From assembly GCA_024277285.1 (NCBI GenBank), contig JAJRVM010000056.1:1-42217 (forward strand): a stretch of 42,217 nt of DNA. The letters run 5' to 3'. Both the position numbers and the translations under genes were made by a program. The stretch comes from Planctomycetota bacterium. Its GTDB lineage: Bacteria > Planctomycetota > Planctomycetia > Pirellulales > Pirellulaceae. Below, piece after piece: positions 4,075-41,906 of this stretch. The notes below the pieces were generated by a model, which saw only the letters and a list, made by a program, of their open reading frames with translations, made no database searches and was not told the DNA's origin. Positions within the stretch are counted from its first letter, which is position 1, and each line of letters starts with the position of its first letter.

Positions 4075-5076
4075 TCACCCTCCCAGTTCGTACATGGGAC
4101 GTTCCGGACGGAGGAAATCGGGTGAGTCGATCCCGTGCCCCGTCTTCTTGGCCCCGACACACGCCTTGACCCACTGCGCCACCTCCTGGTCACTGGCGCA
4201 TCCGCGCAGCAGATTGCGCACGTCCCACTCTTCGGTCGAAAACAGGCAATTCCGCAGTTGGCCTTCGGCCGTGATTCGCAATCGATTGCAGTCCTTGCAA
4301 AACGGCTCGGTCACAGGATTGATAAAACCGATACGGCCGACGCCGTCTGCAAATTGGTAGTCGACCGCCGGCTGGCTGCGGTCAGGCCGAGCGGCCGGTA
4401 CCAGCGGCCCGAATTCGCGCTGCAGCACAGCACGAATCTCCTCACCCGACAACACCTGGTCGGATTGCCATTTTCGGTCGGCATCCAACGGCATGAACTC
4501 AATGAACCGCAACTCCAACAAACTCGCGCGCGCGAACCGGCCAAGTGGAATGATCTCCGGCTCCGTGATTCCGCGAATGGCAACTGCGTTGAGACGAATC
4601 TTCTCGAAACCAACTTGCTGCGCGGCCGCGATCCCGGCTAACACTCGATCGACACCCTGGCGGCGAGTCACGCGCGCAAACGTCTCTTCGCTCAAGCCGT
4701 CCAAGCTAATATTTACGCGACTCAATCCGGCGCGCCGCAATTCGACCGCCTGGTCGGCCAACAACAACCCGTTCGTCGTCATGGCCAAGTCGTCAATCCC
4801 GGGCACCTGCTTCAGCAACCGAACCAAGTCGGCCAAATCCGCGCGCACCAGAGGCTCGCCCCCGGTGATACGCACTCGGTTCACACCTAATTGAGCAACC
4901 ACACCCACAAACCGTTCGATCTCTTCAAACGAGAGAATTTCATGTCGCGGTTTAAACTGCACGTGCTCGTTCGGCATGCAGTAAAAACAACGAATATTAC
5001 AGCGATCGGTCACGCTCACGCGCAGGTTTGAATGCACACGTCCGAAACGATCGATCAGTGGCCCACGAATACTCAT
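4075..5076 (-). CDS. moaA: GTP 3',8-cyclase MoaA (molybdenum cofactor synthesis)
   Basis: A radical-SAM enzyme that, with MoaC, converts GTP to cyclic pyranopterin monophosphate, the first stage of molybdenum cofactor synthesis. The 333-residue form starts MSIRGPLIDRFGR and has the SAM cluster motif CNIRCFYC (Cys26, Cys30, Cys33), then TGGEPLVR for SAM binding. A second cluster of three Cys lies near the C terminus (KDCNRLR, then RNCLFS). It ends in the Gly-Gly pair usual for MoaA. An in-frame ATG at 5115 would add 13 residues and overlap moaE by 23 bases. The inner ATG at 5076 is preferred because family homology begins there and GAAGGGG lies 11 bases upstream; the outer start is not excluded. 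It is the last gene of a minus-strand cluster with moaE and moaD. No moaC is in the window. Confidence 0.96.
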   Translation of the reverse strand: MSIRGPLIDRFGRVHSNLRVSVTDRCNIRCFYCMPNEHVQFKPRHEILSFEEIERFVGVVAQLGVNRVRITGGEPLVRADLADLVRLLKQVPGIDDLAMTTNGLLLADQAVELRRAGLSRVNISLDGLSEETFARVTRRQGVDRVLAGIAAAQQVGFEKIRLNAVAIRGITEPEIIPLGRFARASLLELRFIEFMPLDADRKWQSDQVLSGEEIRAVLQREFGPLVPAARPDRSQPAVDYQFADGVGRIGFINPVTEPFCKDCNRLRITAEGQLRNCLFSTEEWDVRNLLRGCASDQEVAQWVKACVGAKKTGHGIDSPDFLRPERPMYELGG

Positions 5077-5092
5077 ATTATTTTGCACCCCT

Positions 5093-5530
5093 TCATCCAC
5101 ACGCTCCCTCACCATCCGGCAGTCCTGGATGCACCCACTGACTGGTCCCGTCCGTCCAATTCTCTTTCTTCCAAATGGGAACCGCTTCTTTGATCGTATC
5201 GATCAACCACTTGCCAGCTGCAAATGCGGCTTGCCTATGTGCCGAACTGACTGCGATCGCGATGCTCGCCTCCCCTAGCGGGAGATGGCCGACCCGGTGG
5301 ATCATGCAGACTCTTTCTAGCTCCCAACGCTGCTTTGACTCACGTTCTAACGCGGCCAACTTCGCGTGCGCCATTTCCGGATAGCACTCGTAATCTAACG
5401 ACGCTGTCTCGCGTCCTTCGGTGAATTGCCGCGTTGTACCAAGAAACAACACCACCGCACCCGCCCGTGGTGTTTGCACCTGGCTCAGCACGTGCTGAAC
5501 ATCGATTGCCTTTTCGGTTAACTCGATCAT
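5093..5530 (-). CDS. moaE: Molybdopterin synthase large subunit MoaE
   Basis: The catalytic subunit of molybdopterin synthase: it transfers sulfur from the MoaD thiocarboxylate onto cyclic pyranopterin monophosphate to build the dithiolene. It is 145 residues, usual for the family. The conserved core includes GAVVLFLGTTR near residues 24-34, YECYPEMA (47-54), HRVGHLPLGEASI (78-90) and the lysines of KEAVPIWKKE (Lys114 and Lys121), which match the active-site lysines of E. coli MoaE. The frame is open to 5749, but the ATG at 5530 is directly preceded by a GGGGGAGGGG Shine-Dalgarno, and family similarity starts at that Met. The 219 bases between it and the moaD stop hold no recognised gene or riboswitch. 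It is followed closely by moaA on the same strand. Confidence 0.95.
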   Translation of the reverse strand: MIELTEKAIDVQHVLSQVQTPRAGAVVLFLGTTRQFTEGRETASLDYECYPEMAHAKLAALERESKQRWELERVCMIHRVGHLPLGEASIAIAVSSAHRQAAFAAGKWLIDTIKEAVPIWKKENWTDGTSQWVHPGLPDGEGACG

Positions 5531-5749
5531 TCCCCTCCCCCATCGTTCCTCGCTACGCTGGCCACCGGTTGTCCAGCAACACGCCCCTTGCCGCCGGATC
5601 CCCGCAATGGCTGGCGCTCGAACGATCCAAGTCTCACGGCACCCGGCCACGCGCAATGCAGACGCGGCCGATCGCATTGTTCCCCCCACAACAGATGGGA
5701 TAAGAAAACCGAATCCGCCATGCGATACCCAAATTGCAACATGAGCCAC

Positions 5750-5995
5750 CTAACCGCCACTGACCGGTGGAAAACAGGCGATTTCCGCTTTCCCTGCCAA
5801 CGGCAGATCGTCGTCGGCAAACTGCTGATCGACGGCGAACAGCAGATAGGGGCCCAAGGGAGCGAGTGCGGGCCATTGATCGACCAACTGGCGACGGAGG
5901 TCCCCTACGCTTGCAGCATCCGCCAACGGCACCTCAGCCGTTTCCTGGCCAACCGCTTGGCGTGCGGCGGCAAACAATTTCACTTGCACTATCAT
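5750..5995 (-). CDS. moaD: Molybdopterin synthase sulfur carrier MoaD
   Basis: A small ubiquitin-like sulfur carrier of 81 residues. It begins MIVQVKLFAAARQAVG, the first beta strand and loop of the MoaD/ThiS fold, and ends FPPVSGG; the terminal Gly-Gly is adenylated and thiocarboxylated before docking into MoaE. Its ATG overlaps the stop of the FAD/Fe-S oxidoreductase upstream as ATGA, a four-base overlap that suggests translational coupling. The frame continues upstream to 6136 inside the oxidoreductase gene, but that extension has no MoaD similarity. The coupling to a large dehydrogenase rather than to another moa gene is unusual. Confidence 0.93.
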   Translation of the reverse strand: MIVQVKLFAAARQAVGQETAEVPLADAASVGDLRRQLVDQWPALAPLGPYLLFAVDQQFADDDLPLAGKAEIACFPPVSGG

Positions 5996-8946
5996 GTTAC
6001 CACGAGTTCCTCGCCACGCGCCGTCAAAAGTGCCGCCACCTCGGGCATGAGCCCGTACGAGAGCGCTAGGAGCTTGAGCGGATGGATGGTTGGTTTGGTG
6101 GTACCTTGCTCCATTTGGATTTTGCACGAACTGCATTCGGTGGTACCGATTTGGATGGTGGGAGCGCGGAGCGCGGAGATGAGTCCCCAGCCGGCGCGCA
6201 AGCTGCTTCGATAGCTCGATCGCTTCAAACCGAACGTGCCGGCCATGCCGGAACAGGCATGTGAGACTTGCTGGACGGTCATTCCGGGAACGAGTCGCAG
6301 CAAGTTAAACCCAGGCATCCCGACATCGAGCGCGCGTAGGTGGCAGGGGAGATGATAGCCAACCGAAGCATTCACCGGGTTGAGGTCGAGTTCGAGTTGC
6401 CCTTCCTGATGCAACTTCCATAGGTAGGAGCATGCTTCGCTCGTGTTTTCCGCGACGAGCCGCGTATCATCGTCATCGAACAGATTCAGGTACTCGTGCG
6501 TCAAGCAGAGTGCCGCTGCCGGCTCAGCCGTCACCACGTGGTATCCTTGTCGGACGGCTTCGGCCATCAGTTGGACATTGGTCGTCGCCATTTTGCGTGC
6601 AACATCAAGGGCCCCCATCGAGATCGCCCCCATGCCGGATTGCGTTTGCCCGGGCGGTACGTAGACGGCGATCCCGTTGTGCTCCAAGACCGCCACACAA
6701 GCCTCCGCCAATTGCACATCGCTCCAATTCGGATAGATGTCGACAAAGAACAAGACCTTTCGTCCAGTGCGGCGAGTTGGTCGCGTCAGCCTGCGTCGAT
6801 GCGCTTTGCGCAAGAAATTCCGGGGCGCGAATCGTGGCAGCTTACGTCCTTGCGCAATCCCAAGCGTCCGCTCGATCAACCACCGCATGGTTCGGTTGGC
6901 GATCGCCCAATTGGCAAATGGATGAAAAAAAGACCCCCACGCACAAAGCAAATCAAGGCGGGCCAAAAACCAATCGGTCGGGCGCAAGCCGTTCGTCAGA
7001 ACATACTGCGATTTGCATTCGATCATGAGTTTGGGAATGTCAACATGCGCCGGACATTCGAGCCGGCATTGGTGGCAGTTGACACACAAATCGGCCAAAC
7101 TCTTGAGCTCGTCCCCCTGCAACTCAATCGCTGCAAGTTTGCCGGTCAAGATAGCGCGCATCAAGTTCGCTTTCGCGCGCGGCGACGCCTCCTCGCGCGG
7201 TCCATAACGAAAGATCGGGCACATCCGCTCGCTGGCCAGCTGGCTACGGCAGTCACCGCAGCCATTGCACATCCGCGCCGCCAATTCCACCGGCGCGTCG
7301 TGCCATGCCAGCTGTAATTGCACGGGGTAGCTTTCCGACGGCGCGGCTTCGCTCGGCGGTGGCACCGCAACGCTGCGCAGGTTCGCTGTCAGCGGTTGCG
7401 GGGCATCGGCAACCACTTTTCCAGGGTTAAGAATATTGTGTGGATCGAACAGTTGTTTGATCTGGGTAAAGACATCGTAGAGTGGCCCGAATTGGCGTCG
7501 AAGGTACCACGTGCGACTCAGCCCGTCACCGTGTTCACCGCTGATCGTGCCCCCGACGTCCATGACTTTTTCGTATAAGTCGGCCGCGACATCTTGCATT
7601 TTCTGTACGCATTCCGCCGACGCGAGATCGAGGAACGGTCGCACATGCAATTGCCCGTGCGCCGCATGAGCGAACAAGGACGCCGTCACTTGATGCGACT
7701 TCAAGACGTTCTGCATTTGCACCAGAAACTCGGGCAGTTCCGTTGGCGGCACGGCGATGTCCTCCACAAACGGCAGTGGTCTTCCGACTCCTTTGAGACC
7801 ATATAAACAGGGCACCACGCGCCGTACCAGACGCCAAAACAACTCAACTTCCTCACTCTCCAGCGCCAATCGCGACTCGAATGCTAATCGCTTGCGACGT
7901 TGGATTCGCACCACCAGATTCTGCAAACGCTGCCGCACTTCATCTTGACTGTCCGCCTGCACCTCGACCAACAACATTGCCTCGGCATCGCGCGGGATCA
8001 AGAGATCGTAACGCACGTCGGCGTCGCGCGCGATACTCAGTAGGCGACGGTCCATCATGTCGCACGCCGACGTGTTCATCCCAGCAATTTCCAACGCGCC
8101 GCGTGCCGCCGACTCCAACCGATCGAAGAACAACAAAGCGACACCTTTGTGGACCGGCAGCGGCTGAGTCCGCACCGTCACCTCGGTGATCAGTGCCAGC
8201 GTCCCTTCCGAGCCGGCAACCAGGCGAGTCAAATCCAAGTGGCCGTCGCGCAAAATGCCTCGCAAGCGATAACCAGACCGATCAACGCGCGTCTTCGGCG
8301 TGTATTGGTCGATCACCGCACATTCGCGATTCACCACATTCGCGACGTCACGCACCAACGCCTGGCGTCGCGCCGTCGCCGCATCGTCGCTCACCGGATC
8401 ATCCACGGCATGCTTGCCCACCTCGATCACCGATCCGTCCGCCAACACCAACTGCATCGCGACAATCGCGTCACCGGCCGAGCCATATTGGAGCCAGTGG
8501 CTACCCGAGCCGTCCAAGGCGATGACTCCCCCCATCGTCGATACGCTGCTCGTTGCCGGATCGGGACCAAAGATCCGACCCCGATTCGCAAGATACCGGT
8601 TCAACTGAGACAGCACGACGCCCGGTTGGACGCGCACGGTATCGTGGTCAAATGCCAAGATGCGGCGCATGGAATGAGAAAAATCGAGAATCAATCCTGG
8701 GCCAAGCGATTCGCCGGCCAAACCGGTCCCCGCCCCTCGCGGGTGCAGCGGGATCTCATTCTCGAAAGCGTATTGGACCGATGCCACCACATCCGCCACG
8801 CTTCGTGGCCGAACGACCCCGAGAGGACGTATCTCGTAGATGCTCGCGTCCGTCGCGTACATCTGCACGAATACGTCGTCACAGCGGACATCACCGTCGA
8901 GCAACCCCCGCAAGTCGGCCTGGATCCGTTCTCGCTCTTGGTCCAT
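5992..8946 (-). CDS. FAD-linked oxidase / Fe-S / CCG-domain fusion (GlcD-DLD type), 984 aa
   Basis: A large fused oxidoreductase of the D-2-hydroxyacid dehydrogenase type (glycolate/D-lactate oxidation passing electrons onward). Domains in order: FAD_binding_4 at about 35-220 with the nucleotide loop HPRGAGTGLAGES (69-80); FAD-oxidase C-terminal domain to about 510, with GGTISGEHGDG; two 4Fe-4S motifs, CNGCGDC...CP near 559 and CVNCHQCRLECP near 620-630; then two cysteine-rich CCG regions, CHLRALD and CSGMAGTFG ... CSSCK near the C terminus. This matches fused GlcD+GlcF-like proteins of about 950-1000 residues. No signal peptide; probably on the cytoplasmic side of the membrane or soluble. 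The ATG at 8946 has only a weak ribosome-binding site. Its stop overlaps the moaD start. The substrate cannot be told from sequence. Confidence 0.92.
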   Translation of the reverse strand: MDQERERIQADLRGLLDGDVRCDDVFVQMYATDASIYEIRPLGVVRPRSVADVVASVQYAFENEIPLHPRGAGTGLAGESLGPGLILDFSHSMRRILAFDHDTVRVQPGVVLSQLNRYLANRGRIFGPDPATSSVSTMGGVIALDGSGSHWLQYGSAGDAIVAMQLVLADGSVIEVGKHAVDDPVSDDAATARRQALVRDVANVVNRECAVIDQYTPKTRVDRSGYRLRGILRDGHLDLTRLVAGSEGTLALITEVTVRTQPLPVHKGVALLFFDRLESAARGALEIAGMNTSACDMMDRRLLSIARDADVRYDLLIPRDAEAMLLVEVQADSQDEVRQRLQNLVVRIQRRKRLAFESRLALESEEVELFWRLVRRVVPCLYGLKGVGRPLPFVEDIAVPPTELPEFLVQMQNVLKSHQVTASLFAHAAHGQLHVRPFLDLASAECVQKMQDVAADLYEKVMDVGGTISGEHGDGLSRTWYLRRQFGPLYDVFTQIKQLFDPHNILNPGKVVADAPQPLTANLRSVAVPPPSEAAPSESYPVQLQLAWHDAPVELAARMCNGCGDCRSQLASERMCPIFRYGPREEASPRAKANLMRAILTGKLAAIELQGDELKSLADLCVNCHQCRLECPAHVDIPKLMIECKSQYVLTNGLRPTDWFLARLDLLCAWGSFFHPFANWAIANRTMRWLIERTLGIAQGRKLPRFAPRNFLRKAHRRRLTRPTRRTGRKVLFFVDIYPNWSDVQLAEACVAVLEHNGIAVYVPPGQTQSGMGAISMGALDVARKMATTNVQLMAEAVRQGYHVVTAEPAAALCLTHEYLNLFDDDDTRLVAENTSEACSYLWKLHQEGQLELDLNPVNASVGYHLPCHLRALDVGMPGFNLLRLVPGMTVQQVSHACSGMAGTFGLKRSSYRSSLRAGWGLISALRAPTIQIGTTECSSCKIQMEQGTTKPTIHPLKLLALSYGLMPEVAALLTARGEELVVT

Positions 8947-25207: not shown

Positions 25208-26443
25208 GTGACGAAGTCCATTCAAATACACCAATACGAAAACGGCTTGGTGCTCGTCACAGAGCGCATGGAGTGGCTTGAATCGGCCGCCTTCTCGCTG
25301 CTCGTTCCCGCCGGCTGTGCGCATGACGAGTCATCGAAGTTGGGGTTAAGCAACTTCACGTGCGAGATGATCCAACGTGGTTGTGGCGAGCGAGACAGCC
25401 GGCAGTTCATCAACGACTTGGAGAATCTGGGGGTTGATCACAGCGCGTCAGTGGCCAACGCTCACACGAGCTTCGGTGGCGCAATGCCGGCCGACAAACT
25501 AGCACTCGCCATCCCGATCTACGCAGATCTGGTCCAGCGTCCCCACCTGCCTGCCGAACAGGTCGAAGACGCACGACTGGCCTGCATCCAGGAGATCCGG
25601 GCACTCGATGACGACCTGGCGCAGCGCGCCATGCAGGAGTTACGACTGCGGCAATACGGTGACCCGCGAGGGCGCAACAGCCAGGGTACCCTCGAGTCGA
25701 TCGATCGCATCGGCTGGGACGATCTCCAGCAACATCATCAGAACCACTATCGCCCCAACGGCGCCATTCTGAGTGCGGCTGGGAAGATCGATTTCGAGCG
25801 GCTACGCGATCAAATCGGCGCGCAGTTCGGAGCTTGGCAGCCACGCAATGCCCCTGATCTAATCGAATCGCCAGGCGATCGATCGTACGTCCATATTCCA
25901 CACGAATCGAGCCAAACGCATATCGCAGTGGCGTTTCCGAGTGTTCCGTATGGCGATCCCGACTACTATCAAGCGCGTGGGGCGGTCGGCGTACTGAGCG
26001 ACGGCATGAGTTCACGTTTGTTCACCGAAGTGCGTGAAAACCGCGGGTTATGCTATGCCGTTTATGCCGTCTGCCACACGGTCAAAGATTGCGGGTGCGT
26101 GATCTGTTACGCGGGCACGACGACCGACCGCGCTCAGGAAACACTAAACGTTTTGCTCAGCGAATTGACGAAGCTACGCGAGGGCGTGCAACCGGACGAG
26201 CTGCAACGACTCAAGGCGCGGCTCAAGAGTGCCCTGATCATGCAGCAAGAATCGAGTGCCTCGCGCAGCGGCTCGCTTGCCGCCGACTGGTACTATCTGA
26301 ACCGCGTCCAGACACTCGAACAAGTCGGGCGCATCGTCGACGACCTGACGTGTGCCAGCATCAATCGATACCTTACAGAGCACCCACCGGCCGATTTCCT
26401 CGTCGTCACCTTGGGCCAACAACCACTGGAGATGCCCTTTTGA
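25208..26443 (+). CDS. M16-family peptidase homologue lacking zinc ligands
   Basis: A 411-residue protein with the M16B (processing-peptidase-like) two-domain fold: YENGLVLVTERM at the N terminus, NHYRPNGAILSAAGKIDFERL ending the first half, and the C-terminal inverted repeat with SSRLFTEVRENRGLCYAV. The zinc-binding H-x-x-E-H motif is replaced: the aligned residues are N49-F50-T51-C52-E53, so it should not be catalytic by itself. The GTG start has GAAGG upstream. Its stop overlaps the TTG start of the active M16 gene as TTGA, and the pair probably forms a heterodimer in which this subunit binds substrate. Comparable active/inactive M16B pairs are known. No signal peptide, so cytoplasmic if not exported otherwise. 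Confidence 0.9.
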   Translation: MTKSIQIHQYENGLVLVTERMEWLESAAFSLLVPAGCAHDESSKLGLSNFTCEMIQRGCGERDSRQFINDLENLGVDHSASVANAHTSFGGAMPADKLALAIPIYADLVQRPHLPAEQVEDARLACIQEIRALDDDLAQRAMQELRLRQYGDPRGRNSQGTLESIDRIGWDDLQQHHQNHYRPNGAILSAAGKIDFERLRDQIGAQFGAWQPRNAPDLIESPGDRSYVHIPHESSQTHIAVAFPSVPYGDPDYYQARGAVGVLSDGMSSRLFTEVRENRGLCYAVYAVCHTVKDCGCVICYAGTTTDRAQETLNVLLSELTKLREGVQPDELQRLKARLKSALIMQQESSASRSGSLAADWYYLNRVQTLEQVGRIVDDLTCASINRYLTEHPPADFLVVTLGQQPLEMPF

Positions 26444-27678
26444 AATTCCAAGAACATCGCCTCGACAACGGCTTGGAAATCATTGCCGAGTGTAATCCGG
26501 CGGCCTACTCTTCGGCCATCGCTTTTTTCGTGCAATCGGGTGCGCGCGACGAGACCGACGAGGTCTCTGGCGTAAGCCATTTCCTGGAGCATATGGCATT
26601 CAAGGGAACGCCGACACGCAGTGCCGCCGACGTGAATCGCGAGTTGGACGAAATGGGCGCCCACTCGAACGCGTTTACCAGTGAAGAACAGACCGTCTAT
26701 TACATCACCGTCCTGCCCGAATACCAGGACCGAGCGCTTGAATTACTCTGCGACATCATGCGTCCCTCATTGCGTGCGGACGACTTTGAGATGGAAAAAA
26801 AGGTCATCCTCGAAGAAATCGCGAAGTACGAAGACCAACCTCCCTTCGGTGCTCACGAGAAAAGCATGGCAGTCCATTTTCGCGGCCACCCGTTGGCGCG
26901 CAGTGTATTGGGGTCGATCGACAGCGTCACAGCACTCACACCCCAACAGATGCGATCGTACTTCGAGCGTCGCTATGCCCCCAACAACATGACACTCGCC
27001 GCCGCCGGAAACATCGATTTCCAACAACTTGTCAAAGTCGCTCTGGACCTATGTGGAAGTTGGGAGCAGCAGCAGGTCGAGCGTCTGACTCCACCAGCTC
27101 AACCCAATGCCGACTTTCAAGTAATTCCCAACGATATCGCCTCCTTGCAGTACGTGATCCAAATCGCCAATGGCCCGTCCGCAACCGATCCGTGTCGCTT
27201 CGCAGCGCGCGTGCTAGGCACCGTCGTCGGCGACGACAGCGGTAGCCGCCTGTTCTGGAAACTAATCGATACCGGCCGCGCGGAATGCGCCGCAATGGGC
27301 TCCTACGAGTATCAGGGAACGGGTCTCTTCATGTCGATGCTGTGCGGAGCCCCAGAAGAGACGAGCGATAATCTGCAGATGATCTTTGACACGTTGCGCG
27401 AAGTGGAAACCGACGGCATTACGGCAGATGAACTGTCCCAAGCCCAAAACAAAATCTGCTCGCAAGTCGTTTTGCAAAGCGAGCGGCCCGCCAATCGGCT
27501 TTTTTCCGTCGGTGATAATTGGCTCCAACGCCGCACCTACACTTCGGTGCGTGAGATGATTCAACACTACCAAGACGTAACTTGCCAAGGCGTTCGCGCG
27601 GTACTCCAGCAATACCCACTAACAACGCACAGCACCGTTGCCGTGGGACCGCTCCGCGAACTGAAACGGCCAACTTGA
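26440..27678 (+). CDS. M16-family zinc metallopeptidase, active subunit
   Basis: A 412-residue M16B peptidase. The inverted zinc motif HFLEH is intact (His47, Glu50, His51), with a distal Glu in EKKVILEEIAKYED near residue 127. The C-terminal homologous domain contains GDDSGSRLFWKLIDTGRAE and ends with the VAVGP phrase. The frame is open to 26050 inside the preceding gene. However, GGAG lies eight bases before the TTG at 26440 and family similarity (FQEHRLDNGLEII) starts there, so TTG is the start, with a four-base overlap (TTGA) with the inactive partner. No signal peptide. Likely function: degrading peptides of modest length in complex with its partner; the substrate is unknown. Confidence 0.93.
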   Translation: MKFQEHRLDNGLEIIAECNPAAYSSAIAFFVQSGARDETDEVSGVSHFLEHMAFKGTPTRSAADVNRELDEMGAHSNAFTSEEQTVYYITVLPEYQDRALELLCDIMRPSLRADDFEMEKKVILEEIAKYEDQPPFGAHEKSMAVHFRGHPLARSVLGSIDSVTALTPQQMRSYFERRYAPNNMTLAAAGNIDFQQLVKVALDLCGSWEQQQVERLTPPAQPNADFQVIPNDIASLQYVIQIANGPSATDPCRFAARVLGTVVGDDSGSRLFWKLIDTGRAECAAMGSYEYQGTGLFMSMLCGAPEETSDNLQMIFDTLREVETDGITADELSQAQNKICSQVVLQSERPANRLFSVGDNWLQRRTYTSVREMIQHYQDVTCQGVRAVLQQYPLTTHSTVAVGPLRELKRPT

Positions 27679-30166: not shown

Positions 30167-31249
30167 TCACTCCTGCGGTTTGACCACGACGACGATCGAT
30201 TTCTCAGGCGAATAAAAGCGACGGAACGTCTCATGCACTCGTTTCGCGGTGATCGCTTGATACGCTCCGGCAATCGCGGCAATATCGTCCAGATTCCGAT
30301 CGTAGAAAGTCATTTCGGACAACCGACTAAGCCAAAAAACAGGGCTGCGCATCTGCTGCTCGATCGTCACCGCCACCTGTTTCTTGGCCACGGTCAGTTC
30401 TTCCTCGGTAACTCCGTCCGCGGCCATTTGGGCATACATCGCGGCGATCTTTTTGACCAGCTTACCGGCCTCGGCCGGTTTAGTCGGCGCTGCGGCAGAG
30501 ACCATACCGAAACCAGGATAGGTGGTCGCGGGCCGCGAACCAGCCTGAATGCTGTAGACCAACTGTTCCTTTTCGCGGATCTCCTTATTCATCCGTGTCG
30601 AGAGGGCAATGGCCGCGAGTGACAGTGTGCGCTTGTCCAGGACACTCGATTCGTCCGCACCATAGAAGCCGGAAAAGACAAATGCTTTCGGTGTTTCCGT
30701 TTTGATCGACTGCTCCACACGGCGTGGTCCCGCTGGACGTTTGAGTGTTCTTAGCTCACGGTAAAGTGACTTTGAAACTCGCGGCCGCTTGGAAAGCGAT
30801 CCGATGTACTGCGCGACCAGTTCCAAAGCGCGGTCTTTGGGCAAGTCACCCACAATCGCGACCTCGATGGGCGATTCGGCAATCAACTTGTCCAACCACG
30901 CCTGAACCGCAGCGGCATCGCCGACTCCATCGACTTGCGAAATCGTCAATGGTTGCGTGCGCACCGCCTCGGGCGGAAAAGCAACGCCTTGGGCCAACTG
31001 CATCCCGGTCATCATCGGGTCGGTCTGGGCCTGTTCGAGCATCAGACGCAGCATCGTCGTCAGCTGATTCAGCGCCACCGACTCAACTTTTGGCTCGGTC
31101 AGCAGTAGATGTGCCAATTGCATGCCAGCTTCCAAATCGTCAGGGCTCCCAGACACGCTCAACATGATCGAATCGGTGTTACCGTGCCCACCACCAGCGC
31201 CACGACCGCCACCCATGCCCGAGCCCACGTTGACGTTCTTGCCCGTCAT
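30167..31249 (-). CDS. C-terminal part of secreted M16 zinc protease (after in-frame stop)
   Basis: A 360-residue frame that continues the upstream M16 gene in the same frame, after one TAA codon at 31292-31294 and 14 further sense codons. It begins MTGKNVNVGSG and carries the end of the third and the whole fourth M16 domain, with TRMNKEIREKEQLVYSIQAGSRP (the R-x-x-x-Y-type substrate-binding region), FYGADESSVL and the final strand KSIVVVVKPQE. No Shine-Dalgarno is seen before the ATG at 31249, so it is unlikely to be translated alone. Either the gene is a fresh nonsense pseudogene, the TAA is read through, or there is a sequence error. The catalytic motif is in the upstream half. Confidence 0.75.
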   Translation of the reverse strand: MTGKNVNVGSGMGGGRGAGGGHGNTDSIMLSVSGSPDDLEAGMQLAHLLLTEPKVESVALNQLTTMLRLMLEQAQTDPMMTGMQLAQGVAFPPEAVRTQPLTISQVDGVGDAAAVQAWLDKLIAESPIEVAIVGDLPKDRALELVAQYIGSLSKRPRVSKSLYRELRTLKRPAGPRRVEQSIKTETPKAFVFSGFYGADESSVLDKRTLSLAAIALSTRMNKEIREKEQLVYSIQAGSRPATTYPGFGMVSAAAPTKPAEAGKLVKKIAAMYAQMAADGVTEEELTVAKKQVAVTIEQQMRSPVFWLSRLSEMTFYDRNLDDIAAIAGAYQAITAKRVHETFRRFYSPEKSIVVVVKPQE

Positions 31250-31291
31250 TAGAGCCCGAACGTCCGCCGACGTAAGCCGTTTGGTCGCAGG

Positions 31292-33127
31292 TTACATCCA
31301 AGCAATCATTGCTGCCTGAGTAATGCCGCGATTCTCCGCTGTTTCAAATAGCTCGCCACCCAACAACGAAATGCTGATCGTAACTTGGTTCTTATGCGTG
31401 TCCATGAACCGATAGTGAATACGTGCGTTGTTGGACATCCACCCAGACCATACGCCGGTCGACGTGTGCTCCGTCAGATCAAGCACCTTCCCCGATTCAG
31501 GCAGTTGTTCCATCAGCTGAGTCGCATGTTTCACGACCGCTTCGCGCGTCGGTTTCACCGCCAGTGCTTTGCGCGCGATCTCCAGAAGTTGCGATTCGGA
31601 AGGTACGTCATCGGCCGCCGGTAATACGGCAGTTACCGAAAAAACGTCGGGATTAAATTCTTTGGAAAATCGCTGCGATACTTCTTCCAACGTAATCTCG
31701 GGAAGCAATTTCTCGGTCAGATCAAGACGCTGCTGCGCTGACATGATCGGCTCGCCGGCCGCGATCGACCGGTTCATACGCGAAAGCAACGTGCGTGCTT
31801 CGCTTGTCGGCTCGCGTTGCACCGATCGTTTTGCACCGGCCAGGAACCCCTTTCGAGCGTCAGACACCTCTTGCTCGGCAAACCCGAACTTCCTCGCTCG
31901 TTGCAACTCCAACGCCAACTCTTGCAAAGCCGCTTTCCATTGCCCCGGCTTGGCCCGACCGCTTATCTCCGCCGTGTAGATCGTCCCGACCTGGTTGCCG
32001 GCCGATACATTGGCACTCAAATAACTGGTCCCACCTGCCGAAACCTTGTCGGAAAGGCGACGATTCAAGGCCCTGGTCCCCAACCGAACGACCAGATCGT
32101 CGCGTAATTGCGCCGCGGTGGTAGTCGGCGGGCGCACAGGTTCAAGTCGAGTAATCGTAATCTGCTCGGTCTTCACTTCGGGATCACTGGCCACAATGGC
32201 AAAGCTCTCACTGTACGGCTTGACGCCGGCGTCTTGGGGCTCTTGACGTGGTTTCTTGGGAGCATCACCGAAGTTCTTTTGGATCAGCTCGATCACTTGC
32301 TGCGGGTCGGTATCCGCTACCACCAGCAGCGTGACGTTCGACGCCACGTACCACTTCGTGTAATAGTCCACGAAATCAGGTCGCTGCACACTGTTGATCG
32401 TCTCCTTGGTTCCGATCGGAATGCGCGTGCCCAACAGCGAGCCCGGGGCCAGATGTTCGAGCACGTAGTACATCGTACGCTGGTCGCCCGAAAGGCTGCG
32501 AACCCGCTCCTGTTCAATGATCTGCCGCTCGTCTTCAATCTCCTTGGGAGGTAACGAAAGTCGGTACAAGATGTCGGCAAAAAAAGTCATTCCTTTGGTA
32601 ATGGTCTCGGGCTTGACGTCCGGAAGCGAGAGTTGATAGGTCGTCTGATTAAAACTGGTAAAAGCGTTCTGGTCTCGGCCAAACGTCATGCCCAGACTTT
32701 GAAAGAAAGGCACCACTGCTCCTGGTGGATAATTCTCCGAGCCATTAAATGCCATGTGCTCCAAGTAATGAGCCAGCCCACGCTGTCGATCGGTTTCGTT
32801 CAGCGAACCGGTATCGAGATGCATCCAGAGCGTCGCGCGGCCCGGCGGTAGCGCGTGCCGTCGGATCACATATTTCAGCCCATTGCCCAACTGGCCCGTC
32901 ACGAGCGCCGGATCGGTCGGTAAGGCCTGCGCCAAAGTCGAGGTCGCGTAGAAGCATGAGGCAACCAACGTCACCATCATCACGGTCGTCGCCCAATTCA
33001 GCCGCGCCACCAACGCGCCCCAATGGCCCCGCGAATCCAAGTGACTCGCAGCCTTGAGGGCCCGATCCTCGTGAAAAAAACAACAATACGACATGACGGT
33101 AGCGACACGCATTCTTTGAGCTCCCAT
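31292..33127 (-). CDS. N-terminal part of secreted M16 zinc protease, ended by in-frame TAA
   Basis: A 611-residue fragment of a large M16 (insulysin/PqqL-like) protease, usually about 930-990 residues. It has a hydrophobic export segment (WATTVMMVTLVASCFYATSTLAQA) and the intact zinc motif HYLEH with its distal Glu in the helix EIEDERQIIEQERVR. A second domain and the start of the third (ARIHYRFMDTHKNQVTISISLLGG) follow. It stops at TAA within AAMIAWM-stop-PATKR, where the sense frame continues without any frameshift for another 374 codons. The first Met (33127) lies 40 residues ahead of the signal-like segment and has no good ribosome-binding site; a TTG at 33169 or an inner TTG/GTG before LNWATT are alternatives. 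The protein without its C-terminal half should be non-functional. Confidence 0.8.
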   Translation of the reverse strand: MGAQRMRVATVMSYCCFFHEDRALKAASHLDSRGHWGALVARLNWATTVMMVTLVASCFYATSTLAQALPTDPALVTGQLGNGLKYVIRRHALPPGRATLWMHLDTGSLNETDRQRGLAHYLEHMAFNGSENYPPGAVVPFFQSLGMTFGRDQNAFTSFNQTTYQLSLPDVKPETITKGMTFFADILYRLSLPPKEIEDERQIIEQERVRSLSGDQRTMYYVLEHLAPGSLLGTRIPIGTKETINSVQRPDFVDYYTKWYVASNVTLLVVADTDPQQVIELIQKNFGDAPKKPRQEPQDAGVKPYSESFAIVASDPEVKTEQITITRLEPVRPPTTTAAQLRDDLVVRLGTRALNRRLSDKVSAGGTSYLSANVSAGNQVGTIYTAEISGRAKPGQWKAALQELALELQRARKFGFAEQEVSDARKGFLAGAKRSVQREPTSEARTLLSRMNRSIAAGEPIMSAQQRLDLTEKLLPEITLEEVSQRFSKEFNPDVFSVTAVLPAADDVPSESQLLEIARKALAVKPTREAVVKHATQLMEQLPESGKVLDLTEHTSTGVWSGWMSNNARIHYRFMDTHKNQVTISISLLGGELFETAENRGITQAAMIAWM

Positions 33128-35471: not shown

Positions 35472-36278
35472 CTATCGCTGCTTTCGCCGTCGATAGCAAA
35501 CCGCCCCTAATCCCATCATGCCCGCGAACAACAGCAACGAACCTGGTTCCGGTACCGTTGATGCATTCACATATGACACATACGAGTCACTACCCGCCAA
35601 CGTTGAAATGTCGCCGAAACGGAACGTGTTGGCTCGATTGCCCGCAGTGTACTCGGCACCAAGCTTCAGCGTCAAAAGGGGATTCAAGCCGAAGTCAGCA
35701 TCGTCCGCCCCGGCAGTGAACAACTTGAATTCACTGTTCTGCGCGACGAGCTTGAATCTGTTGGGCGCCATCGGTGAAATCGTGTCTTCAAAGGAACTGC
35801 TTTCCGCATCTGCCCAATTGACGTTGTTCGTCGTCATGCGCACGCCATCGCTGCTGATACCGAGAATGATATGGCGATTGTTCATATCAGTCATTGCGAG
35901 CGTATAGCCAGCGCGCCAAACGCCCGATTCGGTATCATAATCCGATCCGTTGGTCGGATCGATCTGAAGCCCGGCTTCAAAGACCACCGCCTGCGAGCTA
36001 GTGAAATCGAAACCATTCATGGCTTCCGCTTTCCAACTCGCGATCGTATTAACATTCGCGATCGATACTTGATGCAGCGCTCGCGCATCACCTTCACCAA
36101 TCACTTCTATTGTCGCTGCGGTGTTCGCAGTTTCCTTTTCCCAACCTTGGACATCAGGCGTTGTTCCGTCCGCAGCACGATAGGTAAAGATCTCGGCCTG
36201 GGCAACGCTTGCTGATAAAACAGCAAACACCCCCACCAGCGTCAGTGTCAGTACAAGTTTTGTTCTCGAAACATTCAT
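35472..36278 (-). CDS. PEP-CTERM sorting-domain protein
   Basis: A 268-residue secreted protein. The signal peptide MNVSRTKLVLTLTLVGVFAV is cut near SVAQA (about 28). The middle is beta-rich, with a phrase GYTLAMTDMNNRHIILGI and Asn/Thr-rich loops, resembling a lectin-like or NPCBM-type sandwich, though no exact family is seen. The C terminus has the PEP-CTERM anchor: VPEPGSLLLFAGMMGLGAV and then CYRRRKQR. An exosortase, which cuts such proteins, should exist elsewhere in the genome. The start at 36278 has AGGGA about eight bases upstream, and this Shine-Dalgarno is one copy of a three-copy tandem repeat. Followed by a strong terminator. Confidence 0.92.
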   Translation of the reverse strand: MNVSRTKLVLTLTLVGVFAVLSASVAQAEIFTYRAADGTTPDVQGWEKETANTAATIEVIGEGDARALHQVSIANVNTIASWKAEAMNGFDFTSSQAVVFEAGLQIDPTNGSDYDTESGVWRAGYTLAMTDMNNRHIILGISSDGVRMTTNNVNWADAESSSFEDTISPMAPNRFKLVAQNSEFKLFTAGADDADFGLNPLLTLKLGAEYTAGNRANTFRFGDISTLAGSDSYVSYVNASTVPEPGSLLLFAGMMGLGAVCYRRRKQR

Positions 36279-37640: not shown

Positions 37641-38945
37641 ATGCGAGCGGACATGGCAATCACCGACTCTAGCGATTTACTGAGATTCGACCGCCAACAC
37701 GTCTGGCATCCGTACACATCGATGACAGATCCCACCGGTGTCCATTGCGCGGTCGGTGCGAAAGGAGTCCATATCGAGTTGGCGGACGGTCGCCGCCTGC
37801 TTGACGGCATGGCCAGCTGGTGGAGTGCCATTCATGGCTACAATCACCCGGTGCTGAACGAAGTCGCACGCGTGCAACTTGACAATATGGCGCATGTCAT
37901 GTTCGGCGGCCTGACGCATGCTCCGGCGGTCGAGTTGGCAAAACGCCTACTGGATCTGGCGCCCGACGACATCGATTGTGTATTCCTTTGCGATTCTGGC
38001 TCAGTCGCGGTGGAAGTGGCGATGAAGATGGCCTTGCAGTATTGGTCCGCCAACGGCGTGTCAGGCCGCCAGCGCTTCCTTACCGTGCGAAACGGGTACC
38101 ATGGCGATACATTACACGCCATGAGCGTATGTGACCCAACGACCGGCATGCACCGGCTATTTGGCGGTGCACTGCCACAACAGTTGTTCGCCGACGCGCC
38201 GCCATTGGGTTATGACCGCCCCCTGGACGAAACAGACCTCAACTCGTTTGCCAGCCTATTGCACGACAACGTCGACGCGATAGCCGGTGTGATCCTCGAA
38301 CCGATCGTGCAAGGCGCGGGCGGCATGCGGTTTTACTCACCGCAATACTTACGGCGCGTCCGAGAACTGACCGCGGCGAGCGGGACCCTGTTGATTCTGG
38401 ACGAGATCGCGACCGGGCTGGGTCGCACTGGCCGGATGTTTGCTGCGGAACACGCTGGCATTTGCCCCGACATCATGTGCGTGGGCAAGGCACTCACCGG
38501 CGGCTACATGACACTCGGCGCTGCCATGACGACTCGCGACGTGGCTCAACGAGTCAGCGGCAATGGTCACGTGCTGATGCACGGTCCAACATTCATGGGA
38601 AACCCACTCGCATGTGCGGTCGCAAACGCCAGCATCGATCTACTGCTCGCATCGCCCTGGCAGCAGAACGTCCAGCGCATCGAACACGCATTATCCAAGG
38701 GACTCGCACCGTGCCGCGACCTTCCACACGTGGTCGATGTCCGCACACTCGGCGCAATCGGTGTGATCGAATTGGACCAACAGGTCGATGTGGCCGCCTA
38801 TCAACAAGCCTTCGTTGCGCGGGGCGTATGGGTCCGACCTTTTGGCAACCTGGTCTACGTCATGCCGCCCTATGTGATGCAGTCCCCCGACCTACAAGTG
38901 CTTAGCGATGTCATTGTCGAAGTCGTAACAGAACACCCGTTGTAA
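37641..38945 (+). CDS. bioA: Adenosylmethionine-8-amino-7-oxononanoate aminotransferase
   Basis: Converts KAPA to DAPA with S-adenosylmethionine as amino donor, the third step from pimeloyl-ACP in biotin synthesis. The 434-residue class-III PLP aminotransferase has HVWHPYTSMTDP near the N terminus, DGMASWWSAIHGYNHP, FCDSGS-like FLCDSGSVAVEVAMK, NGYHGDTLHAMS, LDEIATGLGRTG and the PLP lysine in VGKALTGGYMT. A second in-frame ATG four codons later (37653) is also possible; neither start has a strong ribosome-binding site. First gene of a five-gene biotin operon, preceded by a long palindrome. Confidence 0.96.
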   Translation: MRADMAITDSSDLLRFDRQHVWHPYTSMTDPTGVHCAVGAKGVHIELADGRRLLDGMASWWSAIHGYNHPVLNEVARVQLDNMAHVMFGGLTHAPAVELAKRLLDLAPDDIDCVFLCDSGSVAVEVAMKMALQYWSANGVSGRQRFLTVRNGYHGDTLHAMSVCDPTTGMHRLFGGALPQQLFADAPPLGYDRPLDETDLNSFASLLHDNVDAIAGVILEPIVQGAGGMRFYSPQYLRRVRELTAASGTLLILDEIATGLGRTGRMFAAEHAGICPDIMCVGKALTGGYMTLGAAMTTRDVAQRVSGNGHVLMHGPTFMGNPLACAVANASIDLLLASPWQQNVQRIEHALSKGLAPCRDLPHVVDVRTLGAIGVIELDQQVDVAAYQQAFVARGVWVRPFGNLVYVMPPYVMQSPDLQVLSDVIVEVVTEHPL

Positions 38946-38997
38946 CGCCGTACGCACACCGCACCGGCTCCATCGTTCTTTCATCCCAGGCGTTTTC

Positions 38998-40188
38998 ATG
39001 ACCGACCCGACTCCCTCTTGGCTTGCGGAAATAGCCAGCGACCTTGAGCGTTTGGAAACGCGCGGTCGCCAGCGGCAACTGCGGACGGTGTCGCCGCACC
39101 CGGCGCATCGCATCCAGGTCGACAATCGCAGCTACTTGAACCTGGCGTCCAACGACTACCTCGGTTTCGGCAGTAACTTGGCACTTCACCAGGAATTCGC
39201 CGAGGCATTGGCTGGCGAACAGTTGCTCGAACGCGTTTCGTTCACCGCATCGGCCTCGCGTCTCTTGGGCGGCGAGCATCCCGCCTTGGCGGCACTGGAA
39301 ACACTGCTCGCCGAATCATATGGTGCCAACCGCCGCGCGTTGGTGTTCAACAGCGGCTACCATGCCAACATCGGCATCTTGCCCGCGTTAACCGGCCGCG
39401 ACGACTGGATCTTGTCCGACCGACTCGTTCACGCCAGCCTGATCGACGGGATCAGGCTAAGCCGCGCGCAGTGGTCACGCTATCGCCACAATGACATGGA
39501 CCATTTGAGGGAATTGCTTGTCAAACGTTCCAAGAACGCGCGGCGTATTTTCATTGTCACAGAGTCGTTGTTTAGCATGGACGGCGACGCTGCCAACCTG
39601 GCAACGCTGGTGGATCTAAAACGCCAGTACGGAGCGATTCTGTACGTGGACGAGGCACATGCAGTCGGTGTGCGTGGTGCACAGGGCCTGGGATTGGCCG
39701 AAGAGCTGAAACTGGACAACGAAGTCGATATCCTGGTCGGCACGTTCGGCAAAGCGTTGGCGTCCGCCGGAGCGTTTGCCATCGTCGCCCCGACGGTGCG
39801 AGAGTACCTCATAAACACCGTCCGCTCGTTGATCTTCACGACCGCCCTGCCGCCCGTCACCGTGTGGTGGACCGTTTTCGTTTTGCGACGAGCTCTCGAC
39901 GCCAGCGACCGACGCGCACAGCTGCGCGACTCGGTGCATATCTTCCGTGAAGCGTTGGGGGCCGCCGGACCGGGCTCACACATCGTTCCGTTGGTCGTCG
40001 GCGAGGACCACGCGGCGGTCCTCCTTTCACAACGTCTGCGCGAACGGGGATATTGGGTCCCACCCATCCGCCCGCCAACGGTACCCGAAGGGACCGCGCG
40101 GCTACGCTTCTCGTTGGGAGCGATGATGAACTCGCGCGAGTTGGTCGAGTTGGCCACCGACACCTTGAAGCTGAAGGAAAGCATGTGA
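38998..40188 (+). CDS. bioF: 8-amino-7-oxononanoate synthase
   Basis: Condenses pimeloyl-ACP with L-alanine to give KAPA. The 396-residue fold-type-I PLP enzyme shows YLNLASNDYLGFGSN, GASRLLGG-like SASRLLGGEHPALAALE, FNSGYHANIG, YVDEAHAVGVRGAQG and the PLP lysine in LVGTFGKALASAGAF. Its stop TGA overlaps the bioG start as GTGA. The 52-base gap from bioA carries the ribosome-binding region (CCCAGGCG). Confidence 0.96.
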   Translation: MTDPTPSWLAEIASDLERLETRGRQRQLRTVSPHPAHRIQVDNRSYLNLASNDYLGFGSNLALHQEFAEALAGEQLLERVSFTASASRLLGGEHPALAALETLLAESYGANRRALVFNSGYHANIGILPALTGRDDWILSDRLVHASLIDGIRLSRAQWSRYRHNDMDHLRELLVKRSKNARRIFIVTESLFSMDGDAANLATLVDLKRQYGAILYVDEAHAVGVRGAQGLGLAEELKLDNEVDILVGTFGKALASAGAFAIVAPTVREYLINTVRSLIFTTALPPVTVWWTVFVLRRALDASDRRAQLRDSVHIFREALGAAGPGSHIVPLVVGEDHAAVLLSQRLRERGYWVPPIRPPTVPEGTARLRFSLGAMMNSRELVELATDTLKLKESM

Positions 40189-40901
40189 AGACCGTCTGGT
40201 TACAGCGCGACGATCGGCCGCAAGCACTCGTTTTTTTTGCCGGCTGGGGCATGGACATCCAGCCCTTCCAGCGTCTGACGAGCTCGGCATATGACGTGTG
40301 TGTCTGTTACGACTATCGGGTCAGCCAACCCCAGCCCCATGGAAACGCGCATCCCGACTCGATGTTGCCCGCGGATACGGCGAAGGAGACACTGACCACA
40401 TTGGGAGCGTACCGCGATATAACGGTCGTCGCATGGTCTTTCGGCTGCGCCATAGCCAATCAGATCATGGCGCGCAGCCATTGGCCACTACGCGACGCGG
40501 TCGCGATCAATGGCACCGTGACTCCCGAAGATGAACACATGGGCATCCCGAAACGCTGGCTCGACGCCACCGCCGCGAACCTGCACGAAGATGGGTGGAC
40601 GAAATTCGTGCGTCGCATGTGCCTTGGCAAAGCCGCTCGTCAGGACTTCTTCGACCACTCGCCCAAACGCGACTTGGCCAGTATCGTGGAAGAACTTGAC
40701 GACTTGCGACAACTGGCCACGCCACGCGAATGCCACTTTCGGCGGGCACTCATTGGCAGCAAAGACAGGATCATTCTGCCCGAAAACCAACAGCGTTGCT
40801 GGGAGCACTTTGGAATTCCCTTCCAGACAATCGCCGCATCACACTACCCCTTCCACGTGTGGAACTCGTGGGACGAGTTGCTGGCGACCGAACCGCAGTG
40901 A
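40185..40901 (+). CDS. bioG: Pimeloyl-ACP methyl ester carboxylesterase BioG
   Basis: Removes the methyl ester put on by BioC, releasing pimeloyl-ACP for BioF; it replaces BioH. The 238-residue DUF452-type alpha/beta hydrolase has VFFAGWGMDIQPF at the oxyanion-side start, VCVCYDYR, the nucleophile in VVAWSFGCA (Ser85), an Asp in GSKDRIILP and a His in ASHYPFHVW. A GTG at 40185 overlaps the bioF stop (GTGA) and has GAAGGA seven bases upstream; the longer frame from 40053 lies inside bioF and is rejected. Between it and bioC a palindromic element is inserted. Confidence 0.92.
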   Translation: MKTVWLQRDDRPQALVFFAGWGMDIQPFQRLTSSAYDVCVCYDYRVSQPQPHGNAHPDSMLPADTAKETLTTLGAYRDITVVAWSFGCAIANQIMARSHWPLRDAVAINGTVTPEDEHMGIPKRWLDATAANLHEDGWTKFVRRMCLGKAARQDFFDHSPKRDLASIVEELDDLRQLATPRECHFRRALIGSKDRIILPENQQRCWEHFGIPFQTIAASHYPFHVWNSWDELLATEPQ

Positions 40902-40935
40902 AAAAGGATGAGGTAGAAACGACACCTTCCCCCGT

Positions 40936-41021
40936 CTTAGCTGGCAAAACTCGTTCCCCTACGGGGCAAGCCCGTAGGGGTCCCTGACTTAGTCAAACGC
41001 TGCAATCGACTAAACAGATAC
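40936..41021 (-). repeat. 86-bp REP-like palindromic element, copy 2
   Basis: Opposite in orientation to 15152-15237 and identical at 82 of 86 bases. The central hairpin CCCCTACGGGG-CAAG-type stem is more perfect than in copy 1. It lies between bioG and bioC, within the biotin operon, where an RNA hairpin could stabilise or attenuate the transcript. Confidence 0.9.
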
Positions 41022-41123
41022 AAGAAGCCTACTTACGCTGTTTGTGCCATGCACCGCAACGAACCGTTTCAAGGCAATGCACGATTACGACTGGAAACGC
41101 TGGGCATCTAACAGCCGACTGCG

Positions 41124-41906
41124 ATGGACCAACCTTTGAGCGACAAGACACTGGTGGCAAGGCGATTCGCGCGCAGCACTGCGACGTATCATCGCGCGGC
41201 GATTGTCCAGCGTGAAATGGCCCAGCGTTTGGTGCAGTACGTCGCCGACGCGGCAACAACGCAGGCCTTTGACAACGTCCTGGAGTTGGGCTGTGGCACG
41301 GGCCTGCTGACAGACTTGCTGGTCCGTCAATTTGCCATCCGCCGGCTGGTCCTCAACGATATCGTACCCGACCTCGACGCGCTCGCAGCGCGTTGCGCCG
41401 GTGCCCAGCCAGAGCTGCAGATTGCTCGGCTCCCGGGTGATATGGAATCGGTCACCTTACCGGCCAATCAACACCTGGTCATCTCGAACGCGGTATTACA
41501 ATGGGCCGCCGATGCCGACACGATGCTCCGACGCATGATCGCTGCCGTTCGACCGGGCGGGCTTTTGGCGATCGCAACTTTCGGTCCAAGCAACTTGAGC
41601 GAGACACGGCAGCTCACCGGTACCGCACTACACTATCTTTCACTGAGTGAAATCGAAGCACAACTGGCAGCAGACACCAGCATTCTCGTGCGTGACGAGC
41701 GCATCCGCACAGTCTCTTTCAAAACCGCTTACGCCGTGCTACAACACTTGAAACGGACCGGTGTCAACGGTCTGCGACGTGGCTCTTGGTCACCGCGCGC
41801 GTTCCGCGAGTTTTGCGACCTCTATGAGTCTCGGTTTCGCGACGGCAACCGCGTTCCATTGACTTACCACCCCATCACTATCGTCGCGCGCCGACACAGA
41901 ACGTGA
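41124..41906 (+). CDS. bioC: Malonyl-ACP O-methyltransferase
   Basis: Methylates malonyl-ACP so that the ordinary fatty-acid enzymes can extend it to pimeloyl-ACP methyl ester. The 260-residue class-I methyltransferase has VARRFARSTATYHRAA near the N terminus (BioC typical), the SAM motif VLELGCGTGLLTDLL, DMESVTLP, LVISNAVLQWAAD and a C-terminal TGVNGLRRGSWSPRAFREF (matching the BioC T-G-x-N region). Separated by 222 bases from bioG, the gap being mostly the palindromic element. The ATG at 41124 has no strong Shine-Dalgarno. Confidence 0.94.
   Translation: MDQPLSDKTLVARRFARSTATYHRAAIVQREMAQRLVQYVADAATTQAFDNVLELGCGTGLLTDLLVRQFAIRRLVLNDIVPDLDALAARCAGAQPELQIARLPGDMESVTLPANQHLVISNAVLQWAADADTMLRRMIAAVRPGGLLAIATFGPSNLSETRQLTGTALHYLSLSEIEAQLAADTSILVRDERIRTVSFKTAYAVLQHLKRTGVNGLRRGSWSPRAFREFCDLYESRFRDGNRVPLTYHPITIVARRHRT

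What the first reader, a model, noticed from the sequence alone, without database searches (positions are those of the whole stretch)
30167..33127. Large secreted M16 zinc protease interrupted by one in-frame TAA, with the frame otherwise intact
The two frames 31292-33127 and 30167-31249 lie in the same reading frame. The only break is a TAA at 31292-31294 followed by 14 sense codons (PATKRLTSADVRAL) before the next ATG. Both halves look like normal M16 sequence, with no frameshift or degradation, and no Shine-Dalgarno precedes the downstream ATG. This means a very recent nonsense mutation, a programmed read-through, or an error in the sequence.
Basis: seen in the sequence. Interest (0 to 1): 0.7.

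Follow-up and report, generated by a model that had tools for sequence, protein, structure and literature searches.

The report
Protease gene broken by one stop
A gene for a large exported protein-cutting enzyme in a planctomycete-like bacterium carries a single premature stop codon that the relatives examined lack; this is most likely a recent loss-of-function mutation (or a sequence error) and is ordinary.

Summary
One minus-strand frame of 981 codons (ATG 33112 to TGA 30167) encodes an M16 zinc protease and is cut once, by TAA at 31292-31294, codon 607. Both pieces match M16 models. Of the 120 best relatives listed, 119 are full length (870-1044 aa); the other is this window's own 606-aa piece. 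At the site the 119 carry sense codons: 98 Arg, 12 Gln, 9 other. None of 28 distinct relatives whose DNA was read there has a stop. TAA ends six other ORFs in the window, so reassignment is unlikely. The break lies inside domain 3 of a well-folded model, and the C-terminal piece shows no obvious ribosome-binding site, so two working half-proteins are unlikely. Best reading: a recent, private nonsense mutation in an accessory protease gene. A consensus error cannot be excluded without reads. Read-through lacks support: the stop is not shared, and the downstream RNA fold is matched by 3 of 48 windows of the same gene. Ordinary; low interest.

The parts
31292..33127 (-). N-terminal piece of the M16 protease gene (606 codons from ATG 33112, 611 from ATG 33127): hydrophobic N-terminal segment, domain 1 with HxxEH (residues 115-119 counted from ATG 33112), domain 2, linker, start of domain 3
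31292..31294 (-). the in-frame TAA, codon 607 of 981; sense codon in relatives (98 of 119 Arg, 12 of 119 Gln, 9 of 119 other)
31250..31291 (-). 14 sense codons (PATKRLTSADVRAL) between the TAA and the next ATG; conserved M16 sequence in relatives
30167..31249 (-). C-terminal piece (360 codons from ATG 31249): rest of domain 3 and domain 4 with Arg846 and Tyr853

Best explanation
The gene is an accessory, PqqL-like, exported M16 zinc protease that has been inactivated recently by one nonsense substitution private to this organism or strain. Shown: one stop, an otherwise intact frame, full-length relatives without the stop, and like codon structure on both sides. Inferred: translation ends at codon 607. 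The 606-residue product keeps the zinc domain (D1) and D2 but loses most of D3 and all of D4, including the likely Arg/Tyr pair (assigned by recall of the motif), and is probably inactive and degraded. The change is young because the C-terminal piece has hardly decayed.
For: Full-length relatives are the rule: 119 of 120 listed, the other being the window itself. In a survey of 392 genomes of the phylum of G001, 69 matched at E <= 1e-50 and one listed match was reported with a stop (at most two candidates per genome were scored there). That stop, in G127, aligns at residue 32, before the mature protein. All 28 distinct relatives above 35% identity with readable DNA over site 607 have a sense codon there (30 rows, two places each listed twice). 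Third-position GC is 0.66 on both sides of the stop. Conserved-site deviations resemble the intact closest relative P0002: N 7/163 against 4/164, C 3/88 against 3/88. TAA ends six other ORFs of the window. The gene may be dispensable: in the order of G123, which has the closest aconitase in the phylum sample, only 5 of 396 genomes match at E <= 1e-60, at 24-26% identity; the window's own taxonomic place was not established. A review says both halves of M16 enzymes are needed for full function (PMC12731061, passages).
Against: No reads were available, so an error cannot be ruled out. No whole genome is held, so a suppressor tRNA or an intact second copy could not be sought. No DNA of the 77% relative was available, so dN/dS on the terminal branch was not measured. 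The C-terminal piece shows little decay, which read-through or an error would also predict.
Confidence: 0.62

Rival explanations
1. Consensus or assembly error, or a minority-strain base taken into the contig; the gene is intact in the organism.
For: The protein cluster holds one member on one contig. A single changed base would suffice, and both pieces look constrained. Interrupted fragments of this family, many with out-of-frame tails or possibly cut by contig ends, recur in the protein collection, so broken copies are common in such data.
Against: No other homology-supported interruption was seen in this 42-kb contig (20 proteins scanned, not every gene compared with relatives). Several breaks seen in relatives carry out-of-frame tails, unlike the clean substitution here.
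Confidence: 0.27
2. Functional stop-codon read-through giving both a 606-residue and a 981-residue protein.
For: The frame is intact downstream. The 105 nt from the stop fold more stably than shuffles (z -2.48, 4 of 200 shuffles as stable). A published survey argues that in-frame stops are widespread in bacterial genes and often read through (PMC7918605, passages seen).
Against: The stop is not shared by any relative examined. UAA is ordinarily the least leaky stop (recalled). The downstream fold is not special: 3 of 48 windows along the same gene are at least as extreme, and a fold centred on the stop has z -0.22. A search for Planctomycetes + stop codon + readthrough listed 4 papers, none on this topic by title.
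Confidence: 0.06
3. Two working genes, or two half-proteins assembling like the two-chain M16B enzymes.
For: Two-chain M16 proteases exist (PMC12731061, passages), and a separate pair of M16 genes lies at 25208-27678 in this window. Of 67 C-terminal fragments of the family, 15 (this one included) have an implied start at residues 590-640, some on contigs long enough to hold more of the gene (P0126, P0169, P0180, P0181, P0187), so breaks near here in other copies are not excluded. A sigma-70-like match lies just upstream, at 31404-31377 on the minus strand, but 2 matches were found where shuffles give 1.2.
Against: The break falls within domain 3, not in the D2-D3 linker at about 517-543. The C piece begins without a hydrophobic segment by eye, so the halves would lie in different compartments (inference; no predictor run). 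No Shine-Dalgarno precedes it. ORF starts near 622 are expected for any break upstream, because Met622 is present in 111 of 119 relatives.
Confidence: 0.03
4. TAA reassigned to an amino acid in this organism.
For: One in-frame TAA at a site that is a sense codon in relatives.
Against: TAA terminates six other ORFs of the window, including ndk and bioA (names recalled). Only one gene is seen to be affected.
Confidence: 0.01

Closest known systems
Porphyromonas gingivalis M16 peptidase (PDB 9ldy)
   Same: Best solved relative by sequence (E 2.1e-66, residues 61-960) and by fold (TM 0.86/0.92)
   Different: Solved as one long chain of 912 residues; 23% identical in the fold alignment
PqqL of E. 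coli (PDB 6ofs) and FusC (6b03, 6b05)
   Same: Single-chain M16 proteases with two joined halves; PqqL is periplasmic (PMC6793856 and PMC12731061 passages)
   Different: Intact. They are linked to TonB-dependent protein import; such a transporter was not noticed among the window's genes but was not specifically sought
In-frame stops in bacterial genes (PMC7918605; passages seen)
   Same: A sense-to-stop change inside an otherwise conserved gene
   Different: That study concentrates on stops shared by two or more species; here the stop is seen in one contig only

Membership tests
M16 peptidase, long single-chain PqqL/FusC type | M16 domain with HxxEH zinc motif | tested here: met
   Pfam PF00675; HYLEH at 115-119
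M16 peptidase, long single-chain PqqL/FusC type | Distal zinc-site glutamate | tested here: met
   E195 and E202 both present, each Glu in 119 of 119 relatives; which is the ligand was not resolved
M16 peptidase, long single-chain PqqL/FusC type | Four domains in two halves on one chain | tested here: not met
   The read-through model spans the whole fold, but under the standard code the chain ends in domain 3
M16 peptidase, long single-chain PqqL/FusC type | Arg/Tyr pair in the C-terminal domain | tested here: inconclusive
   R846 and Y853 are present in 119 of 119 relatives and encoded after the stop; their assignment as the pair rests on recall, not on a structural superposition
M16 peptidase, long single-chain PqqL/FusC type | Signal peptide and periplasmic location | tested here: inconclusive
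   Helix at residues 40-60 in the model, hydrophobic by eye; no signal-peptide predictor was run
Recent pseudogene (nonsense allele) | Stop absent from orthologues | tested here: met
Recent pseudogene (nonsense allele) | Stop is real in the DNA | not testable with these tools
   no reads
Recent pseudogene (nonsense allele) | Relaxed constraint after the stop arose | tested here: inconclusive
   Window branch somewhat faster in both pieces: 57-71 sites changed against 36-52 in P0002 over ten outgroups, p 0.01-0.31, outgroups not independent
Programmed stop read-through | Stop conserved across relatives | tested here: not met
Programmed stop read-through | Distinctive stimulatory RNA structure | tested here: inconclusive
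   z -2.48 downstream, but 3 of 48 windows of the gene as extreme and z -0.22 around the stop
Reassigned stop codon | TAA not used to end genes | tested here: not met
   six other ORFs end in TAA

The most novel reading that the evidence does not exclude
The stop is a recent, functional leaky switch: a lineage-specific read-through, for example through a suppressor tRNA elsewhere in the genome, that keeps a small supply of full-length protease while the main product is a zinc-domain fragment.
Probability: 0.04. Interest if true: 0.5.

Novelty: new member of a known kind. Interest (0 to 1): 0.12.

Why it matters
It matters little beyond annotation. The two pieces should be annotated as one interrupted gene, not as two proteases. 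If reads confirm the stop, it is a snapshot of loss of an accessory exported protease; if peptides crossed the junction, it would be a case of UAA read-through worth study.

Tried and rejected
Split gene as a family trait. Rejected. I placed 67 C-terminal fragments (the 22 remoter rows P0189-P0210 of the 89 rows were left out) and 119 N-terminal ones (119 of the 120 listed rows, 468 matched). Break points scatter, many with out-of-frame tails. Thirteen N-terminal pieces, the window's included, have an implied end at 585-650; only the window's ends in frame at 606. The nearest others are P0239 (implied end 607, but its match stops at 602 before a foreign tail) and P0213 (ends in frame at 614 on a 6,086-base contig; contig end not excluded). 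Fifteen of the 67 C-terminal pieces, the window's included, have an implied start at 590-640.

Other interrupted genes in the window. Open runs of 142 and 140 codons follow the HDOD gene and moaA, but neither has a Pfam match, and the domains of the genes before them are nearly complete.

Finding the DNA of the 77% relative. Not reached; the genome-contig scan gave 51% at best and genome surveys 58-61%. One search (plasmids) found nothing and only remote matches. The RNA fold after the stop looked promising until compared along the gene. Paper searches were seen as listings only; of three papers, PMC7918605, PMC12731061 and PMC6793856, passages were seen.

Full report
Observation. The minus strand from 33127 (or 33112) to 30167 is one reading frame broken by a single TAA at 31292-31294, codon 607 of 981 counted from ATG 33112. 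Fourteen sense codons separate it from the next ATG at 31249. The ATG at 33112 has GGGAG 8 nt upstream; nothing similar precedes the ATG at 31249 (by eye). Past the stop the frame stays open for 374 codons, more than after any of the other 30 ORF stops checked (next 218, 142 and 140).

What it encodes. Pfam finds the M16 and M16_C domains in the N-terminal piece and a second M16_C domain in the C-terminal piece. The best solved relatives by sequence are the M16 peptidase 9ldy and E. coli PqqL 6ofs. An AlphaFold2 model of the frame read through (mean pLDDT 86.8, pTM 0.84) matches 9ldy with TM-scores of 0.86 and 0.92. HxxEH is at 115-119; R846 and Y853, which I take from recall of the motif to be the Arg/Tyr pair, lie after the stop. 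In the model the two halves are joined at about 517-543; the stop at 607 lies inside domain 3, just after a short helix (603-606) and before the helix at 615-622. The only stretch near it with pLDDT under 50 is a glycine-rich loop at 633-644. In PreP, loss of either residue of the pair abolishes activity (PMC12731061, passage).

Relatives. A search of about 5.8 billion proteins gave 1423 matches at E <= 1e-3 among the 7995 candidates scored; 120 are listed. Of these, 119 are 870-1044 aa long and one is the window's own 606-aa piece. The closest, P0002, is 979 aa and 77% identical. At the column of the stop, the 119 relatives have Arg (98), Gln (12, including P0002), Ser 2, Asn 2, His 2, Thr 2, Ala 1. 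In the DNA of relatives above 35% identity, 30 rows (28 distinct; two places are each listed twice) cover the site and none has a stop (121 loci were given). In a survey of 392 genomes, 69 matched at E <= 1e-50, with at most two candidates per genome scored; 7 of the 69 matched at 50% identity or more. One match was reported with a stop, G127, but this aligns at residue 32, upstream of the mature protein; one genome, G173, shows an apparent frameshift near residue 349.

Selection. Third-position GC is 0.66 in both pieces. Residues never seen in the other relatives: window 2.0% (N) and 4.1% (C), P0002 1.8% and 3.8%. Deviations at conserved sites: window 7/163 and 3/88, P0002 4/164 and 3/88; the window's N-terminal figure is the highest of the 27 sequences compared, its C-terminal figure is not. 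A relative-rate count against ten outgroups gives 57-71 changes on the window branch and 36-52 on that of P0002, more on the window branch in every case, nominal p 0.01-0.31 over the whole protein; the ten tests are not independent. Q201 replaces a Glu found in 119 of 119 relatives, next to E202. So constraint was present until recently; weak signs of loosening exist in both pieces, not specially after the stop.

Alternatives. TAA ends six other ORFs of the window, which speaks against reassignment. The RNA from the stop onward folds at z -2.48 against shuffles (-2.37), but 3 of 48 windows tiled over the same gene are at least as extreme, and a stretch centred on the stop is ordinary (z -0.22). 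Read-through therefore lacks positive support, though it is not impossible: Belinky and colleagues argue that in-frame stops in bacterial genes are often read through, many for short periods (PMC7918605, passages). Two working halves are unlikely, because the cut is inside a domain and the second piece has no visible export signal. Family fragments found in the collections have scattered break points, though 15 of 67 C-terminal ones start at residues 590-640, as the conserved Met622 would lead one to expect. A promoter-like match just upstream of the C piece is within what shuffles give (2 against 1.2). Error versus real mutation cannot be decided without reads; no other homology-supported break was seen in the contig, with 20 proteins scanned.

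Setting. The contig looks planctomycete-like: its aconitase is at most 72% identical to any of 392 sampled genomes of the phylum of G001, and its closest M16 relatives with a name are from Pirellulaceae, Planctomycetaceae and Phycisphaerae bins. The M16 subfamily is patchy: 5 of 7 genomes in the order of G148 at E <= 1e-100, but only remote matches, 5 of 396 at E <= 1e-60, in the order of G123. This fits an accessory gene that can be lost, though the window's own order is not known.

Verdict. Observation confirmed; a recent nonsense allele of an accessory M16 protease gene is most likely, a consensus error second. Ordinary.

Noticed in passing
window 32510-32512: Residue 201 is Gln where 119 of 119 listed relatives have Glu, beside the conserved Glu 202 near the zinc site.
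   Followed up: partly
window 31181-31216: Glycine-rich loop at about residues 633-644, variable in length among the relatives aligned and of low model confidence.
   Followed up: no
window 25208-27678: A separate pair of adjacent M16 protease genes, each with both M16 domains by Pfam.
   Followed up: partly
window 37641-41906: Biotin-type cluster: BioG is supported by Pfam; bioA, bioF and bioC are named by recall from their sequences.
   Followed up: partly
window 4075-6136: moaA, moaE and a ThiS/MoaD-like gene side by side on the minus strand.
   Followed up: partly
window 35472-36278: Protein with a C-terminal tail resembling a PEP-CTERM sorting signal (recalled motif); no Pfam match.
   Followed up: no
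   Followed up: partly
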